30,066 nucleotides of DNA from a virus. The stretch is taken from positions 1 to 30,066 of IMG/VR virus record IMGVR_UViG_3300002231_000547, one strand, 5' to 3'. Position numbers and translations under genes: made by a program. The notes beneath the pieces are model-generated. The model had not been told where the DNA came from, ran no database searches, and worked only from the letters and a program-made list of their open reading frames with translations. Positions 1-9,992 of this stretch are shown here, in pieces. Within the stretch, counting starts at the first letter, position 1; each line of letters begins with the position of its first letter.

Positions 1-235
1 TGGATGAAAAAAGGATTTACTGAAGAAGAAGCTATAAAAAAGAGATCTGAAAGACAGATCACCTTTTCTTTGGATATTTGTCAGGAGAAACATGGAAAAT
101 AAAAAACACCTTGAATTAGAAAGAGACCGTTCCATAAAAGCATCAGGATACAAAGTGCTTCACATAAAAGAAATTGATTATAAACAAAACCCTAAGGAAA
201 CTATTTCATTATGCTTAAATTATCTGACACAATAG
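1..235 (+). pseudogene. 3' remnant of a Vsr-like homing endonuclease gene
   Basis: Two reading frames give pieces of one family. Frame 1 (1-102) encodes a GFTEEEAIKKRSERQ-type repeat, usual upstream of the catalytic core in phage endonucleases. From 92 another frame encodes ERDRSIKASGYKVLHIKE and stops at 235; this is the usual C-terminal end of Vsr-like (EDxHD) homing endonucleases. The catalytic part with its FDGxxWH-type motif is not present between them, so this is either an internal deletion or a frameshifted, decayed gene. It overlaps the start of the intein C-fragment (211), an arrangement known for fractured phage genes in which an endonuclease gene separates the two halves of a split intein. 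Family assignment is by recalled motif similarity only. The 5' end lies outside the window. Confidence 0.6.
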
Positions 236-579
236 AAAGAAAATTTACAGATTCATTTGATATTGATGAATGGGAAATAGAAACTGACACCGGATGGCAG
301 GATATTTCATCTATTCATAAAACTGTGCCATATACAGTTTGGGAAATAAAAACAGAATCAGGAAAATCATTAAAGGCCGCTGATACTCATATTTTATTTG
401 ATGGAGAAATGAATGAAATATTTGTTAAAGATTGTATTCCAGGATTCACAATAATAATGACTAAAGATGGCCCAGAACAAGTTTCTAATCTTTATGAATT
501 AGATTATTCCGAACCAATGTATGATGTTTCGGTTCCTAATGGTGAACGATTTTATTCTTCGGATATACTTTCACATAAT
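211..579 (+). other. C-fragment of an atypically split intein (TerL insertion)
   Basis: The first 123 residues have intein, not terminase, features: a block-B-like AADTH, a block-F-like YDVSVPNGERFYSSDIL, and the terminal SHN followed by Thr as +1 nucleophile. The first splicing block (N-terminal Cys) is absent, so a short N-fragment must be encoded elsewhere, upstream. A C-fragment of about 120 residues that contains block B matches the atypical split seen in AceL-TerL and VidaL inteins, which also sit in phage TerL. Splicing in trans would rebuild the Walker A loop. The split is supported by the independent ATG and by the endonuclease frame running past it to 235. Confidence 0.8.
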
Positions 580-1984
580 ACAGTTTCCTCCGCTAGTTAT
601 CTCCTCTGGTATGGTCTATTTCATGAAAGTAAAACCATTGGAATTCTAGCCAACCTAGGAGATATGGCACGAGAAATCCTTTCACGTATCAAGATGGCGT
701 TTGAACAACTACCAACATGGTTACAACAAGGAGTTGCCGGTGACTGGAACAAAGGAAGAATCCAATTTGAAAATGGTTCCAAGTTCGTGGCTTTTGCCAC
801 TAGCGGGGATGCTGCTCGTGGATATTCATTTTCATATCTTTACATTGACGAATGCGCCATTATTGAGCATGGAATATGGGAAAACTTTTACAAATCGACT
901 TATCCGACGGTCTCTTCAGGTACCGAAACTAAGATTACTCTTGTGTCAACTCCCAAGGGATTGAACCATTTCTATAAACTTTGGACCGAAGCTGAAGAAA
1001 AAATACAATTCATATAAGACATTTGATGTCCATTGGGCTGATGTTCCTGGCAGAAATAAAGCTTGGAAAGAAAAAACCTTAAGCTGATATTGGTCAAGAA
1101 GCGTTTCAACAGGAATATGAAACCGAATTCCTAGGTTCATCGAATACACTCATTCTCGGTTCACGACTGAGAGAATTAGCTTTTAAAAAACCAGCTCATG
1201 AAAAACATGGGTTGGCTGTCTATGAAGGACCGGATAGTAAATCACACCTATATCATAACAGTGGATACAGCAAGAGGAAAAGGTCAAGATTATTCAGCTT
1301 TTATTGTTTCTAATGTTACCGAAATCCCGTACAAAATGGTTGCCAGATTTAGATCCAATGACATTCCCGTATTTAGGTATCCTGATGTGATTCATAGGGT
1401 GGCGGTTGATTACAATGAAGCTATGGTATTGATTGAAGTGAATGATATTGGTCAGCAAGTGGCTGACATTTTGAATCAGGATTTTGAATATGAAAATGTG
1501 ATGATGTCCTCGATGAAAGGAAGAACCGGTCAAGTGCTCGGTGCTGGATTTGCCGCTTCTTCCAGACCTGGTATTACCATGTCTAAAGCTGTTAAACGAG
1601 TTGGATGTTATAACTTGAAAGACTTGATAGAGGATAAGAAATATCTATTGAATGATGCTGATACAATCACAGAGCTTTCGGTATTTGTTTCCAAAGGCCA
1701 AAGCTTTGAAGCTGAGGAAGGATACCATGATGATTTGGTGATGTGCTTGGTGATGTTGGCATGGGTGGTTTCACAAAAGTATTTACCGTGAATATATGGA
1801 TCAAAACATAGCTGCCAGAATTGCCACAGAAAAAATGAATGCTTTAATGGAGGATATGACCCCATTTGGAATAATAGATGATGGAACAGTGTCTGGAGAA
1901 ACTTTCATTGATAATTCAGGTACAATATGGAATGTTTCAGATCCTGATCCTGAAATGTATCCAGACACATTCAGGAACTTTTAG
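211..1984 (+). CDS. 17: Terminase large subunit (gp17-like), C-terminal fragment with split-intein C-part; frameshifted
   Basis: This is the DNA-packaging motor ATPase/nuclease. Residues 1-123 are an intein C-fragment; the extein begins at Thr (580) at the Walker A position. Visible motifs are Walker B YLYIDECA, motif III LVSTPKGLNHFY (also conserved in T4 gp17), and the nuclease acidic residues in VDTARGKGQDYSAF and EEGYHDDLVM. Translation breaks at the A-run 998-1003, near 1081, near 1240 and near 1780; each is repaired by removing or adding one base, and the intervening frames align collinearly with T4 gp17. The tail after the last break (DQNIAARIATEKMNALMEDM, to 1984) is taken as its C terminus. 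The start ATG 211 has AAGGA about 12 bases upstream, inside the endonuclease remnant. The N-terminal half with Walker A must lie upstream of the window. Confidence 0.9.
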
Positions 1985-2079: not shown

Positions 2080-2735
2080 ATGATGTATAGTATTTATGTC
2101 CTGACTTGTGAAAATACAGATTTACAATACATTGGTGTCTGTCAGGATTTTGATGATAGGATGAAAGAGCATAGAAAGGCCAGAGGTGGTTGTCGAAAGC
2201 TTTACAACGCTATCAAAAAATATGGTTGGGATTCATTCACAAAGGAAATTTTATTTGAATCGTGGGATCATGAATATGCGTGGAAAACTATTGAACCATT
2301 TTTCATAAAGGAATTCAAAACCAAACATCCTTTAGGTTATAACTTGACTGATGGGGCTGAAGGAGTACCTGGTTTAGTTCATACTACTGAGTCTAATGAA
2401 AAAAACAGACAAGCTCATTTAGGAAAAAAGCTTCCAAAGAAACAAAGGCTTTGTTAAGTAAACTAAAAATGGGAAACACTTTTGCGAAAGGATCTAAAAA
2501 TCCTTGTTCTAAGAAAAAGGCTAATAAGATAAGTAAGGCTAAAGAAAAATTTGATTGGTATATTAAATGTCCTAATGGAACTATCGAAATTACAAAAAGT
2601 ATTCCAAAATTTTGTAAATTAAAAGGAATACATCAAGGAAATCTTTATTCTACTTTCACAGGAAAAAGAAATCATACAAGTCATTATAAAATAATTGATA
2701 GAAAACTAATAAATAACTTAAAAATAGGAGAATAA
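2080..2735 (+). CDS. GIY-YIG homing endonuclease (Seg-like), one frameshift
   Basis: Free-standing homing endonuclease between gp17 and gp18. The N terminus has the GIY-YIG core: SIYVLTCEN, then LQYIGV, then the Arg in DRMKEHRKARGG; the family cuts intron- or gene-less relatives to spread itself. The C-terminal part is lysine-rich (GNTFAKGSKNPCSKKKANK), like NUMOD DNA-binding segments in T4 Seg proteins. The frame breaks at the A-run 2424-2429; dropping one A joins it to the frame ending at 2735, giving about 218 residues. The start ATG 2080 follows AGAGGAGAAACT. The ribosome site of gp18 (AGGAG) lies within its last codons, so the element is inserted tightly against the sheath gene. Confidence 0.88.
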
Positions 2736-2736
2736 C

Positions 2737-4874
2737 ATGGCTTTTCAAATTAGCCCAGGAATTGTTTCTAAGGAAATTGATTTGACCACTACCCTAAATC
2801 CATCATTCTCAACTACCACAGGTGGTATCGTTGGTCCTTTTGTTTGGGGACCTTTGAATGACGCTGTATTGGTTGATGGTGAAGTTGCTATGGTTGAAAC
2901 TTTCTGGAAACCAAATTCTGAAACGTATGTGACGTTTTTCACAGCCGGTTCCTTTCTTTCATACGGGAACCAATTAAGAGTTGCTCGTGTTGCTAATGAA
3001 TTAGTAGCACTCAATTCGACTTCATCCACACAATCAATTACCGGTGTAGTTAATGTTGCTTCTGGAACATTAGATTTACTACAACATGACGGTGTTGGAA
3101 CTGCTACTCTTTTTGATGTTGAATTGAGAGCCGGACAAACAATTGTGGTAAATGCTGAAACAAGAGTAGTAAATAACGTAGTAAATTCCACTCAAGCTTA
3201 TGTAACAACCGATTTTTCCGGTGCTATTGCTAATGGAAATGCTGTATCTGTTTGGGGAGAACTTATCAAAAATGACGCTGATTATGACGCGAATTTTGCT
3301 GATGGATCTGGAACTTCCGAAGTTCTTTGGACTGCAAAATATCCCGGATCTATTGGTGATTCGATGAAAGTTTCTATTTGTCCTTCATCCAATGCTTTTT
3401 CTCATGTACCTACTGAAACAGCAAATACTTTGGGCACTACGATTACTTTTAGTGCTAATATGGCAGGACAAGTTGTTGTCGGTTCTTATATCAAAGATGA
3501 TCAAGGTGGATCGCCTTCAGGAGAACAAAGACAAATTACAGCTTCAACCAATAATACTGTTTACACACTTGCTTCTAGTTTCACGACTAATATAGCGGAT
3601 GCTACATCTGTGACTGTAAAATGGGAATATGCTGATGTTCTTGGTTCAGCTCCTGGTACAACAGATTACGCTTCTACAAGAGGTGGATTGAATGATGAAA
3701 TGCACATGGTTATAGTTGATGAAGATGGTGACTGGACAAATGATCCTGGTTCTATTCTCGAAACTTACAAAGGACTTTCATTCGCATCTGATGCTAAACT
3801 CGATGATGGTTCAGCTAACTATTATGCTGAAAAAATCGCTCGTGAATCAAAATATATTGTTTGGACGGATCACCTTCCTGCAGGATTGAATTGGGGAACG
3901 GCAGCTGTCGGAACAACTTTTACTCATGTTGAATCTCCTAGCACTTTAAGTTTATTCGGAGGTCTTGACGGAAATACACCTGCTGAAGGATTCGGAAATG
4001 ATGAAATGATCCGAGGATATGACCTATTTAAGAATGCAGCGGAAGTAAATGTGGCTCTTCTTAGTGGGTGGGGATGACAAATCAAACTGTTGCTCTTCAT
4101 ATCATCCAAAATATTGCAGAATTTAGAAAAGATGTTCTCGCATTCTTTTCTCCAGAATTTTCTGATGTTGTTGCTAATGAAGGAAATGAAGTTGATGATG
4201 TAGTAGCTTTTAGAAATTCACTTGTTTCTACATCATACGCTTCTATGGATTGTAACTGGAAATCAATGTATGACAAATACAATGATACATTCAGATGGAT
4301 TCCATGTAATGGTGATGTAGCCGGTCTTTGTGTAAGAACTGACAATACCAGGGACGCATGGTTTTCACCCGCCGGATTTAATAGAGGTTTCATTAACAAT
4401 GCTGTGAAACTTGCATGGAATCCAAATAAAGCTGAGCGTGATGTTCTTTATCCAGCTACTATAAATCCTATCAACTCATTTACAGGACAAGGGATTATCC
4501 TTTATGGTGATAAGACAATGTTAACAAAAACTTCAGCTTTTCAACAAATTGGAGTCCGTAGATTGTTCATCATCCTTGAAAAAACGATTGAACAAGGTGC
4601 TCAATATACCTTGTTTGAATTCAACGATGCTTTCACAAGAAACCAGTTTAAGTCTATTGTGGAACCATTCCTAAGGGATGTTAAAGGTCGAAGAGGATTG
4701 TTTGACTTCTTAGTTGTATGTGATGAGTCAAATAACACACCAACTGTTATTGACCGAAATGAGTTTATCGGTGATATTTATTTGAAACCTGCTCGTTCCA
4801 TCAACTTCATTACATTGAATTTTGTAGCTGCTAGGACTGGTGTTGAATTTAGTGAAATCGTTGGTAAGTTTTAA
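2737..4874 (+). CDS. 18: Tail sheath protein (gp18-like), one frameshift
   Basis: Contractile tail sheath subunit that surrounds the tail tube. The N terminus MAFQISPGIVSKEIDLTTT and GGIVGPFVWGP are typical of T4 gp18, and the C-terminal part (LKPARSINFITLNFVAARTG) is the conserved sheath end. Full length is about 712 residues, near the T4 size. The frame breaks in the G-rich stretch 4065-4074; one extra base there would join LLSG to VGMTNQTVALHIIQN. The gene is followed by a late promoter and a strong hairpin, then by a second homing endonuclease that separates it from gp19. Confidence 0.95.
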
Positions 4875-4949: not shown

Positions 4950-6407
4950 ATGACTACTGATATTTATAAATTTATAAATAAAAATATTTTCAATTCAATA
5001 GGAAGAATTAATTCATTAGCTTCAAAAAAAGAATGGTGGATAAAAAAAGGAATTGAAAAAGAATGGGATTTATTCATAGAGAAAACTAATTTTTTAATTC
5101 CCAATTCAAAGAATATTTTAAAACAAAGAGTTTATTGTCTTGCAAATGATATAAAAGAATTACCAAGATGCTATTGTGGAAATCCTCTTACATTTTCTTT
5201 ACCATTAAAAACTTATCATGAATATTGTTCTGTAAAATGCCAAGGAAATTCACCTAAAGTAAAAAATAATAGAGAAAAAACTTGCATTAAAAAATTTGGA
5301 TCTAAAAGTCCTCTTGAAAATAATGAAGTTTTATCAAAAATTAAAAAAACAAATCAAAAAAAATATGGTGTTGATTTTCATACTCAAAAAAATATTCCTA
5401 AATCTTCTTTGGAATTAATTGAAAATCGAGAATGGTTGCAAAACCAACATCATAATTTAAAAAAATCAGCTATTGAAATATCTAATATTCTTGGGTATAA
5501 AAACAATACTGAGGTTTTAAAAAGATTACATAAATTTGGAATTGAAATTAAAAATTATGCTGTTTCATCTTTTGAAAATGAAATTTATGAATGGCTGAAA
5601 TTAAATTATGATGGTGAAATAATAAGAAATTCAAGGAAAATTATTTCTCCTAAGGAATTAGATTTTTATTTACCAAAAGAAAAATTAGCAATTGAATTTG
5701 ATGGTATTTTTTGGCACAATGATAAAAGAGTTTCAAAGAATTATCATATTGAAAAAACAAAAGAATGTGAAAAAAAAGGAATCCAATTACTTCATATTTT
5801 TGAAAATGAATGGAATAATAAAAAGGATATTTGGAAATCAATATTAGAAACTAAATTAGGAAAATCTAAAAGAATATTTGCTAGAAAATGTAAAATTATT
5901 TATTTGGATACTGAAAAAAAGAATAGATTTCTTAATAAAAATCATCTACAGGGTTCTTGTGTTTCTAAAATAAACATAGGTTTGGAATATCATGGGGAAT
6001 TAATTTCGGTGATGACATTCGGTAAATCCAGATTTTCTGAAAAATATGATTGGGAAATTATTAGATTTGCTAATAAAATAGGGATGTCTGTGGTAGGAGG
6101 AGCTTCAAAAATATTAAAAGAATTTAAAAAATATAATAAAGGTTCTATAATAACTTATGCTGATAAAAGATATTCTAATGGAAATTTATATGAAAAATTA
6201 GGATTTAATTTTTCACATGAATCCAGTCCGAATTATTTTTATTTCAATTCGGATAATATTTTATATTCTAGGAATAAATTTCAAAAACATAAATTAAAAA
6301 ATGTATTGAATATATTTAATTCTGATAAAACTGAATATCAAAATATGATTGATAATGGATATATGAGAATTTGGGATTGTGGGAATCTTTCTTTTCGTTC
6401 CTTATAA
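4950..6407 (+). CDS. Vsr-like (EDxHD) homing endonuclease between gp18 and gp19
   Basis: This 485-residue protein is intact. The middle part carries the catalytic core of the Vsr-like homing endonuclease family: KELDFYLP (about residue 235), LAIEFDGIFWHNDK (about 248-261) and the following GIQLLHIFENEW. The N-terminal third has Cys pairs (CYCGNPL, YCSVKCQGNS) that may form a zinc finger, and SPLENNEVLSKIKKTNQKKYG repeats common in phage DNA-binding modules. The C-terminal part (VMTFGKSRF, YADKRYSNGNLYEKLGF) resembles a conserved phage endonuclease-associated domain. Base composition looks more AT-rich than the flanking tail genes, in line with recent transfer. It is read with gp19, whose late promoter overlaps its stop. 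Confidence 0.85.
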   Translation: MTTDIYKFINKNIFNSIGRINSLASKKEWWIKKGIEKEWDLFIEKTNFLIPNSKNILKQRVYCLANDIKELPRCYCGNPLTFSLPLKTYHEYCSVKCQGNSPKVKNNREKTCIKKFGSKSPLENNEVLSKIKKTNQKKYGVDFHTQKNIPKSSLELIENREWLQNQHHNLKKSAIEISNILGYKNNTEVLKRLHKFGIEIKNYAVSSFENEIYEWLKLNYDGEIIRNSRKIISPKELDFYLPKEKLAIEFDGIFWHNDKRVSKNYHIEKTKECEKKGIQLLHIFENEWNNKKDIWKSILETKLGKSKRIFARKCKIIYLDTEKKNRFLNKNHLQGSCVSKINIGLEYHGELISVMTFGKSRFSEKYDWEIIRFANKIGMSVVGGASKILKEFKKYNKGSIITYADKRYSNGNLYEKLGFNFSHESSPNYFYFNSDNILYSRNKFQKHKLKNVLNIFNSDKTEYQNMIDNGYMRIWDCGNLSFRSL

Positions 6408-7015: not shown

Positions 7016-9992
7016 ATGGATATATTTGGTATATCCATCACCAAAAAGAAGCAACCTATAGAAAAAGCTGTGTCATTTATCCCTAAAGTGGAAGATGATG
7101 GTGCTATAGTTGTTTCTTCAGGTGCTGGAGCCTACGGGCAATATATAAACATGACCGGTTTTAATCCAAAAACCGAAATTGATTTGATTAATAAGTATCG
7201 TAAAATATCAATGATGCCAGAGGTAGAATCTGCTATCCTTGATATTGTCAATGAAGCTATAGTTGAAAACGATAACGAAAGACCTGTTGAGGTTGCGTTT
7301 GACCCTGCTTTGAAAATGCCTGTTGCTGTGAAAAATAAAATCACGGAACAATTCAATAGGGTCAAAAGGGCTTTGAATTTTGATTGTGATGCGGCTGAAA
7401 TATTCCATAGATGGTATGTTGATGGGCGTCTATATTATCATGATATTTATGATGAAGAATTTGGTAATGGAAAGAAAGTTTCTGAAGGAATTAAAGAAAT
7501 ACGGTATATTGATCCTAGAAAAATAATGAAAGTCAAAGAAACAGAGGAACAACTGACTAGAAATGGATCCAAAGCCGTAAAAACTGTTGATGAATATTAT
7601 ATCTATACAGAAAATGAATCAAAAACCGATGGTATAAAAATACTCAAAGATTCTATTACATACGTACATTCTGGATTATTCGACCCAAACCGAAATCTTG
7701 TTTTAGGACACCTCAATAAATCAATCAAACCACAAAATCAACTGAATATGCTTGAAAATGCGGCTGTGATTTACCGTATTTCAAGAGCTCCTGAAAGAAG
7801 GATTTTCTATGTTGATGTTGGTAACCTTCCTAAAACAAAAGCGGAGAGTTATCTAAAAGGGATCATGCGTCAGTATAAAAACAAGCTGACTTATAATCCG
7901 GAAAACTGGGGAAACAAAAGATGCCACTGACCAACAGTCAATGCTTGAAGATTTTTGGTTGCCACGGAGAGAAGGTGGGAAAGGAACTGAAGTAACAACA
8001 TTACCGGGTGGCTGTTTTGATATGAATACTAAAATTCCATTACTTGATGGTAGAAAATTATCTTTATATGAATGTGAAAAAGAATTTAATGATGGTAAAG
8101 AAAATTGGATTTATTCATGCTCTCCAGAAACAGGTGAGATAAAGCCAGGAAAAATAGGATGGGCTGGTGTTACACAAAATTCATCTCAAGTTATGGAAAT
8201 TGAATTAGATAATGGTGAGAAGGTTATTTGCACACCCGATCATAAATTTCCGATTATTGGTAAAGGATTTGTTGAAGCTCAAAATTTAAAAATAAATGAA
8301 AGTTTTATTCCATTTAATACAAGAAATCAACAAATAAAGAAAAAAGGAAAAGAATATAATCAAATCTATCAAAATCATTCAAAAAAATGGGAATTTGTAC
8401 ATCGAAGTGTTGCTAAAAATATAAATTTAGAAGAATTTGTTTTTGATGTTGATACAAAAAAAGATACTATACATCATAAAGATTTTGATAGATTTAATAA
8501 TAATCCTGAAAATCTTGTTTTGATGAATAATAAGGATCATTTTAAATATCATTCTTATTTAGGATTTTCAAAAGAAAATCAAATAAAAGGAACAATTGCT
8601 GCTAAAGAGAAAATTCAAAATATGACTGAAAAGGAATATAATGAATTTTGTGAAATAATCAGTAAGAATTCAAAAAAATATTGGAATGAGTTAACACAAG
8701 AAGAATATTTAATTCAATGCAAAAAAATATCCAAAGCTCAAAAAATTAGAATAAATAATTTTGATTCTTTTGAATATGAAAAAATGTTAACTCATTTAAA
8801 CAATATTTCTGAAAAAGGAAATAAAGCTTTAAATTTAAAAATAAAAAATATTAAAGATTTTCAAAATAAATTTCGAAATTCCATTAGTAATGATAAAATC
8901 ATTTTAAGTAAAAAAAGATCTTTACAAAACAAAAAAAGATTTCTCGACAATGATTACAAAGAAAGGGTTTTTAAAAATCAAACAATAAAATTTCCAAGAG
9001 AATTATTGAATTTTGTTTCATCTTCTAAAAATAAAACAGCAAGAGAAATTGTAAATGAAATAAATAATAATGAGATTTTGAATGTATTTTTAGAAGAAAA
9101 TAAAAATACAAAATGTGCTAATTGGAATAATGATTGTTTTAGATTAACTCATTTAAATAAACTTGTGAATTTTTATGGTTATGATAATTGGAGACATTTT
9201 AAGAAAGATTTGAATGTTTACAATCATAAAATAGTTTCAATAAAATTTTTAGAAAAACCAATAGAAGTTGGTACTCTAACTATTGATAATGAATATCATA
9301 CATTTGCTATCTCACAAGGAATTTTTACAAAAAATTCTAATCTTGGGGAAATGGAAGATGTTGATTATTTCAAGAAAAAATTATACAAATCATTAAATGT
9401 TCCTATTTCAAGGATGGATCCTGAAAATCAATTCAACATGGGTCGGTCACAAGAAATAACAAGGGATGAGCTAAAATTCCATAGATTCATACAAAAATTA
9501 CAAAAGCGATTTTCTCTCTTGTTTTATGACTTACTGGAAAAACAACTTATATATACAAAGACTCTTTCAAAAGAAAAATGGAAAGAAATTAAACCAATGA
9601 TTTCGTTTCAATTTGCTAAAAACAACCATTTCTATGAATTAAAAGAAACCGAATTGATAACGGATAGACTGACCATAATGAGGGATATCCAAGATTATAT
9701 TGGAACTTATTATTCAGCTGATTGGGTAAGAAAAAATATCTTGAAACAATCTGATATAGATATAAAGGAAATTGATAAGCAAATAAAACGTGAAGTGGAA
9801 GGTGGTGATATTGCTGAACCAGATTTGGATGCTGAAAGGCAAGCTAGAATGGGAACAGTTCCAGAACCTGAAATGGATGTACCACCATCTGATGGAGAAG
9901 GTGAAGCTCCTCCAGATGATAATCCTCCTCAAGAAGAGGATAATAATTTTCTTGCTGGTTCAACAAAATTGAAATTAGCAACCAAACGATAG
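7016..9992 (+). CDS. 20: Portal protein (gp20-like) interrupted by an in-frame intein; one frameshift
   Basis: Portal vertex protein forming the DNA entry ring. N-extein features include EVESAILDIVNEAIV, VDGRLYYHDI and YRISRAPERRIFYVDVGNLPK; the conserved MLEDFWLPRREGGKGTEVTTL-type block ends at Gly 8012, and SNLGEMEDVDYFKKKLYK resumes after the intein at 9336. The frame breaks at the A-run 7902-7905: one A fewer gives NPETGETKDATDQQSMLEDF, the known portal sequence. Without the intein and break, the protein is about 550 residues, close to T4 gp20 (524). The C terminus is acidic and proline-rich, then ends FLAGSTKLKLATKR. AAGAGG upstream of ATG 7016 is the ribosome site. Confidence 0.95.
8013..9335 (+). 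mobile_element. Intein with HNH homing endonuclease in portal protein
   Basis: An uninterrupted 441-residue insertion at PGG / SNLGEM. Splicing signs: first residue Cys (8013), block-B-like CTPDHKF, block-F/G-like EYHTFAISQGIFTKN, terminal Asn, and Ser as +1 residue. The penultimate residue is Lys rather than the usual His, as in some active inteins. In the middle lies an HNH-type region, TIHHKDFDRFNNNPENLVLM (about 8467-8526), followed by lysine- and asparagine-rich sequence and RFRLTHLNK-like DNA-binding segments. The insert is visibly more AT-rich than the flanking portal sequence. Its intact frame, in a gene with an indel elsewhere, supports a functional element. Confidence 0.9.

What the first reader, a model, noticed from the sequence alone, without database searches (positions are those of the whole stretch)
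1..582. Fractured terminase: atypical split intein C-fragment with an endonuclease in between
The terminase C-part starts with its own ATG at 211 and a 123-residue intein fragment that holds block B and the SHN/Thr junction but lacks the N-terminal Cys block. The endonuclease frame runs past this start to 235, so the two must be separate products. A very short N-fragment is expected upstream, as in AceL-TerL and VidaL inteins. Trans-splicing would rebuild Walker A, so packaging would depend on it.
Basis: partly seen in the sequence, partly recalled or inferred. Interest (0 to 1): 0.85.

Follow-up and report, generated by a model that had tools for sequence, protein, structure and literature searches.

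The report
Split terminase rejoined by split intein
An environmental T4-like phage encodes its DNA-packaging motor in two separate pieces that must be stitched together by a self-splicing protein, with the remains of a selfish DNA-cutting gene in between; it is a new example of a known kind, and related sequences show the same cassette in several other phage ATPases.

Summary
Window 211-579 encodes a 123-residue HINT-fold intein C-fragment, then Thr+1 and a T4 gp17-type terminase ATPase domain. The predicted upstream partner exists: contig L103 ends in an exact 99-nt overlap with window 1-99 and carries the terminase N-part ending APRQSGK plus a 41-residue intein N-fragment starting with Cys. 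Trans-splicing would rebuild Walker A at the site that is uninterrupted in inteinless relatives.

Corrections: the intervening endonuclease is broken in this assembly. Some 105-120 codons including the core are missing; frame 1 stops at 102 and only a C-terminal remnant reaches 235. The 25-nt stop/start overlap (211-235) recurs in 42 of 79 relatives, and L157/L158 are a near-identical intact/deleted pair. The insertion site (Thr+1) differs from AceL-TerL and GOS-TerL (Cys+1).

Fractured genes and atypically split terminase inteins are published, so this is a new member of a known kind. Beyond the window, the same cassette sits at Walker A of five P-loop NTPase families. Splicing was not tested.

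The parts
1..102 (+). End of the N-terminal part of the homing endonuclease (frame 1), 'WMKKGFTEEEAIKKRSERQITFSLDICQEKHGK*'; this part starts at its own ATG on L103 (531-1, minus strand) and has 177 residues
   Evidence: 57% identical to L003 endonuclease residues 156-190, E 2e-8; exact overlap with L103
92..235 (+). C-terminal remnant of the endonuclease in another frame (homologous from about 119), '...ERDRSIKASGYKVLHIKEIDYKQNPKETISLCLNYLTQ*'; about 105-120 codons with the catalytic core are missing between it and the previous part
   Evidence: alignment with L003, Cr30, L107, L118, L119, L139, L163 endonucleases
194..198 (+). AAGGA, possible ribosome-binding site for the ATG at 211, inside the endonuclease tail
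   Evidence: sequence; 23 of 37 relatives have a 4-base Shine-Dalgarno core within 22 bases upstream of this ATG; inference only
211..235 (+). 25-nt overlap of the endonuclease stop and the intein C-fragment start
   Evidence: same overlap in 42 of 79 split relatives, including L002-L004 and the endonuclease-deleted L158
211..579 (+). Intein C-fragment (IntC), 123 residues; block B (ADTH) at 379-390, Ser-His-Asn at 571-579
   Evidence: AlphaFold2 pLDDT 91, pTM 0.82; VidaL 6vgv is the best PDB match
580..1017 (+). Terminase large subunit C-extein, first open stretch, beginning at Thr+1 of Walker A
   Evidence: Terminase_6N; phrog_5989 from profile position 170
1018..1791 (+). Rest of the terminase large subunit; the reading frame is broken between about 1003 and 1230, probably sequence errors
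   Evidence: inteinless Cr30 TerL residues 87-489 match window 571-1782

Best explanation
This is a fractured large-terminase gene. One protein, on L103, is the N-extein (85 residues, to the Lys of Walker A) plus a 41-residue IntN. A Vsr-like homing endonuclease gene, gutted in this assembly, sits between. A second protein, starting at window 211, is IntC (123 residues) plus the C-extein. Inferred mechanism: IntN and IntC associate into a HINT domain, Cys1 and Thr+1 carry out class 1 splicing, Asn123 cyclises, and the ligated terminase has ...RQSGK-TVSS..., an intact Walker A. Neither half has a complete ATP site alone, so packaging would depend on trans-splicing. The endonuclease would once have spread the cassette by homing into inteinless Walker A alleles; its tail is kept because it overlaps the start, and probably the ribosome-binding region, of the IntC gene. 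Shown: both halves, their tiling on an inteinless terminase, conserved catalytic residues, predicted fold, conserved gene arrangement. Inferred: association, splicing, dependence of packaging, past homing.
For: L103 carries the partner with an exact 99-nt overlap, terminase-cluster gene order and the best tetranucleotide match (r 0.923; next 0.756). The two halves tile phrog_5989 at 88-170 and 170-296 and the inteinless Cr30 terminase, whose residues from 87 on match window 571-1782. The N-part aligns to T4 gp17 111-194, ending at SRQLGK. The IntC model is a confident HINT fold: VidaL Z 14.0, Cat IntC Z 12.9. Intact loci with the same order: L002-L004 and dozens more. A cis intein sits at the same site in Ackermannviridae.
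Against: No splicing assay. L103 and the window are separate contigs, and the join rests on a 99-nt overlap that ends exactly at the endonuclease break, so an assembly branch there is possible. The terminase frame is broken downstream (about 1003-1230); if those breaks are real, this copy is non-functional.
Confidence: 0.92

Rival explanations
1. The break in the endonuclease is an assembly artefact: the population carries an intact endonuclease and the window contig was joined across an ambiguous node. The split terminase and intein remain as described.
For: L103 ends exactly at the base where the window's endonuclease breaks, with a k-mer-like 99-nt overlap. Other genes of the contig have frame breaks.
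Against: L157 and L158 show a natural 833-nt deletion of the same gene that keeps the same tail; L138/L148 look like a second such pair. No other contig holding the tail was found.
Confidence: 0.4
2. The intein is an ordinary cis-intein whose N-part was separated from the C-part by sequencing errors.
For: Ackermannviridae have a contiguous intein at this very site, and this contig has frame breaks.
Against: IntN ends in its own stop on L103, about 100 nt before a separate endonuclease ATG. 79 of 79 viral-contig relatives with both parts are split, with the same 25-nt overlap in 42. A homing domain inside a cis-intein normally sits near the C-terminal third, not before block B.
Confidence: 0.04
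3. A decayed, non-splicing relic: the phage is defective or another terminase copy does the packaging.
For: TerL frame breaks at about 1003-1230; gutted endonuclease.
Against: IntC is intact with every invariant residue; breaks also hit the tail sheath and portal genes, which points to sequence errors rather than decay of one gene. No other terminase N-part in the own record.
Confidence: 0.06

Closest known systems
Fractured genes (Dassa et al. 2009, doi 10.1093/nar/gkp095; cited in PMC13014065, text not held)
   Same: Host gene split by a split intein with a free-standing homing endonuclease gene between the halves; that the endonuclease family there is Vsr-like is from memory
   Different: Here the intein is split near its N-terminus, and the endonuclease has lost its core in this assembly
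AceL-TerL and GOS-TerL (PMC11766414, PMC13014065)
   Same: Natural atypically split terminase inteins with short IntN (25 and 37 residues) and IntC of 104 and 115 residues, split after the first helix (S2); the 41-residue IntN here looks like the same type
   Different: They use Cys+1 (PMC11766414 table 3); here Thr+1 at Walker A, so a different insertion site
VidaL (PDB 6vgv)
   Same: Best structural match of the IntC model, Z 14.0; natural atypical split
   Different: IntN of 16 residues, split at S1 (PMC13014065); here 41 residues
Ackermannviridae TerL cis-intein (e.g. Salmonella phage Marshall, 'intein from Cys110 to Asn268')
   Same: Same insertion site, homologous IntC (about 34-40% identical), Thr+1
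   Different: Contiguous, no endonuclease
TerL1-a P-loop inteins of mycobacteriophages (PMC5050341)
   Same: Inserted between the Walker A Lys and Thr
   Different: Cis inteins in terminase_1; here split, in a T4-type terminase

Membership tests
Intein (HINT splicing domain), class 1 | HINT fold | tested here: met
   AlphaFold2 pLDDT 91; 69 PDB chains with Z 8 or more, the listed rows being inteins and other HINT domains
Intein (HINT splicing domain), class 1 | C-terminal His-Asn and Cys/Ser/Thr at +1 | tested here: met
   SHN|T at 571-582; S121 H122 N123 invariant in 53 sequences
Intein (HINT splicing domain), class 1 | Cys or Ser at position 1 | tested here: met
   Cys1 on L103 directly after the Walker A Lys
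Atypically split intein | Natural split with a short IntN (15-37 residues in the published cases) and a long IntC, as two genes | tested here: met
   IntN 41 residues to its stop, IntC 123, separate stop and start
Atypically split intein | Trans-splicing activity | not testable with these tools
   needs proteins
Fractured gene | Free-standing homing endonuclease gene between the halves | tested here: inconclusive
   N-part on L103 and C-terminal remnant present, core missing in the assembly; intact in L002-L004 and most relatives
AceL-TerL / GOS-TerL allele | Same insertion site with Cys+1 | tested here: not met
   Thr+1 at Walker A here; +1 of AceL and GOS is Cys in PMC11766414. L005 carries an IntC of Cat type at a second, Cys+1 site
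T4 gp17-type large terminase | Homology on both sides of the intein, with Walker A at the junction | tested here: met

The most novel reading that the evidence does not exclude
The window belongs to a large, mostly undescribed family of atypically split inteins that all sit between the Walker A Lys and Thr/Ser of unrelated phage P-loop NTPases (terminase, SbcC/gp46-like, DnaB/gp41-like helicase, clamp loader, ClpX-like). The cassette moves between genes by using the conserved Walker A coding sequence, and repeatedly loses its endonuclease while keeping the endonuclease tail as the leader of the downstream half-gene.
Probability: 0.55. Interest if true: 0.6.

Novelty: new member of a known kind. 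Interest (0 to 1): 0.45.

Why it matters
Few naturally occurring atypically split inteins are described (Hoffmann et al., PMC7891396, expect further ones to be very rare), and they are valued for protein labelling. This locus leads to 53 distinct IntC sequences, most with their partners, all at Walker A, including closely related intact and endonuclease-deleted alleles. That makes it possible to test how a split intein persists after its mobile part is lost, and supplies many candidate pairs with Thr+1 or Ser+1.

Tried and rejected
N-part elsewhere in the own record: no match with L003's N-part, so it lies off this contig. Exact 30-mer from the IntC in viral contigs: none. Exact 30-mer from the endonuclease tail, to find an intact version or the other branch of the assembly: none. 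The last 31 bases before the break occur in L103 only. Single-protein Pfam scans did not name the endonuclease convincingly; the PI-PLC-C1 and ROS_MUCR matches are below cut-off and were disregarded. The key papers (Dassa 2009, Bachmann 2015, Stevens 2018) are not held. The tree of IntC has many open forks, so host switching is suggested, not shown.

Full report
What is there. The window is the first 30,066 bases of a 36,408-base viral record, and base 1 is the contig end. ATG 211 opens a frame whose first 123 residues are an intein C-fragment and whose remainder is the ATPase domain of a T4 gp17-type terminase. In an alignment of 53 relatives, K11, E22, G28, W29, T38, A57, D58, H60, G87, M103, D105 and S121-H122-N123 are invariant. 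AlphaFold2 on that alignment gives pLDDT 91 and pTM 0.82. The nearest solved structure is VidaL, a naturally and atypically split intein (Foldseek E 5.4e-6; Z 14.0, 2.3 A over 108 residues). The IntC of the engineered atypical Cat intein also matches (Z 12.9). Other inteins score within about one Z unit, so the fold alone does not decide the subfamily.

The missing half. Scanning viral contigs for the first 30 bases of the window returned one contig, L103 (IMGVR_UViG_3300002231_001121). Its reverse complement ends in exactly window 1-99. Its last genes include a terminase N-part of 126 residues: 85 residues ending APRQSGK, followed by CLLYQSLTSIRNKKTGEIIEIPIGEFFDMIDKKQESININE and a stop. About 100 bases on comes the ATG of an endonuclease that runs into window 1. 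Three independent checks tie the halves together. First, they tile the profile phrog_5989 at 88-170 and 170-296. Second, the L103 part aligns to T4 gp17 up to SRQLGK, and the inteinless terminase of Caulobacter phage Cr30 matches window 571-1782 from its residue 87, directly after its QSRQSAK Walker A. Third, L103 has by far the most similar tetranucleotide profile among 70 loci (0.923; next 0.756).

The split is real. In L002-L004 the whole arrangement is on one contig: terminase N-part with a 34-residue IntN, endonuclease, IntC plus terminase C-part. Of 84 IntC loci examined, 79 include the N-part and all 79 are split; in five the N-part was not found; none is cis. In 42 loci, many of them near-duplicates, the endonuclease ends 24 bases past the first base of the IntC ATG, exactly as 211/235 in the window. 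A sequencing error would not reproduce that.

The endonuclease of this assembly is broken. Positions 1-99 match residues 156 to about 190 of the L003 enzyme in frame 1 (stop at 100-102), and 119-226 match residues 306-341 in frame 2. The region with the EFNGDYWH-like core of the relatives is absent. The break coincides with the end of L103, so an assembly branch cannot be excluded. Natural precedents exist, however: L157 and L158 are about 98% identical on both sides, and L158 lacks 833 bases of the endonuclease while keeping its last roughly 45 codons and the overlap. L138 versus L148 looks like another such pair. The simplest reason for keeping the tail is that it holds the start region of the IntC gene; 23 of 37 relatives have a Shine-Dalgarno core there. 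That is inference.

Family context. The same IntC family occurs as a contiguous intein at the same site in Ackermannviridae (Kuja, VAP7, Marshall and others); a Campylobacter phage terminase also carries a contiguous relative. It is split without an endonuclease in Delftia phage PhiW-14, Agrobacterium phage Atu_ph07 and L005. Cr30 has an inteinless terminase with a related, intact endonuclease just upstream. In 78 of 80 close terminase relatives Walker A is uninterrupted (the two rows labelled 'intein?' by the script read GKSVT and are uninterrupted; the other two showed no motif). The cassette also sits at Walker A of SbcC-like proteins, DnaB-like helicases, a gp44-like clamp loader and a ClpX-like protein. 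On the IntC tree the host gene changes at least five times and the endonuclease state at least eleven, with weak support at many forks.

Known or new. Fractured genes with split inteins are published (Dassa et al. 2009), as are the atypically split terminase inteins AceL-TerL and GOS-TerL (PMC11766414, PMC13014065), and insertion between the Walker A Lys and Thr is called a 'classic' P-loop insertion (PMC5050341). The window is therefore a new member of a known kind. It is not the AceL/GOS allele, which has Cys+1; an IntC of Cat type is seen at another site of L005. The breadth of the Walker A family may be new, but the central 2009 paper could not be read here.

Limits. No splicing was tested. 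The window's terminase frame is broken between about 1003 and 1230, and the tail sheath and portal genes have breaks too, which points to sequence errors in this contig. The source environment of the record was not given.

Noticed in passing
end of window, continuing in L009 1-2374 (record 30067-32440): A second fractured gene on the same record: a UvsW-like helicase with an intein N-fragment after '...MVICDE', a 320-residue endonuclease-like ORF, then a 35-residue intein C-fragment before 'CHQAKSK' and the helicase C-domain. This one is split at the usual (canonical) position.
   Followed up: partly
window 7016-9992: The T4-type portal protein carries a large intein with an HNH endonuclease domain (about residues 25-465 of the second ORF); a frame break lies near 7930.
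   Followed up: partly
L005 399-3897: A terminase in three pieces with two split inteins: one at Walker A without endonuclease, one of Cat type at a Cys+1 site with an endonuclease between its halves.
   Followed up: partly
L020 2062-5479 (Vibrio phage Va1): Terminase split at a Cys+1 site, with the Vsr-like endonuclease fused in frame to the intein C-fragment.
   Followed up: no
L002-L004: The terminase C-part holds a second, contiguous mini-intein after '...SSTAIRGFS'.
   Followed up: no
L104 2900-5479: The endonuclease between the halves lacks the EFNGDYWH core and shows a GIY-YIG-like stretch instead; a further SegE-like GIY-YIG match lies in the terminase C-part.
   Followed up: no
window 2080-2457 and 4950-6407: Further homing endonuclease genes (GIY-YIG; phrog_3339) flank the tail sheath gene; the record is rich in mobile endonucleases.
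   Followed up: no
window about 1003-1230, about 4060-4075, about 7930: Frame breaks in three essential structural genes suggest indel errors in this contig.
   Followed up: partly
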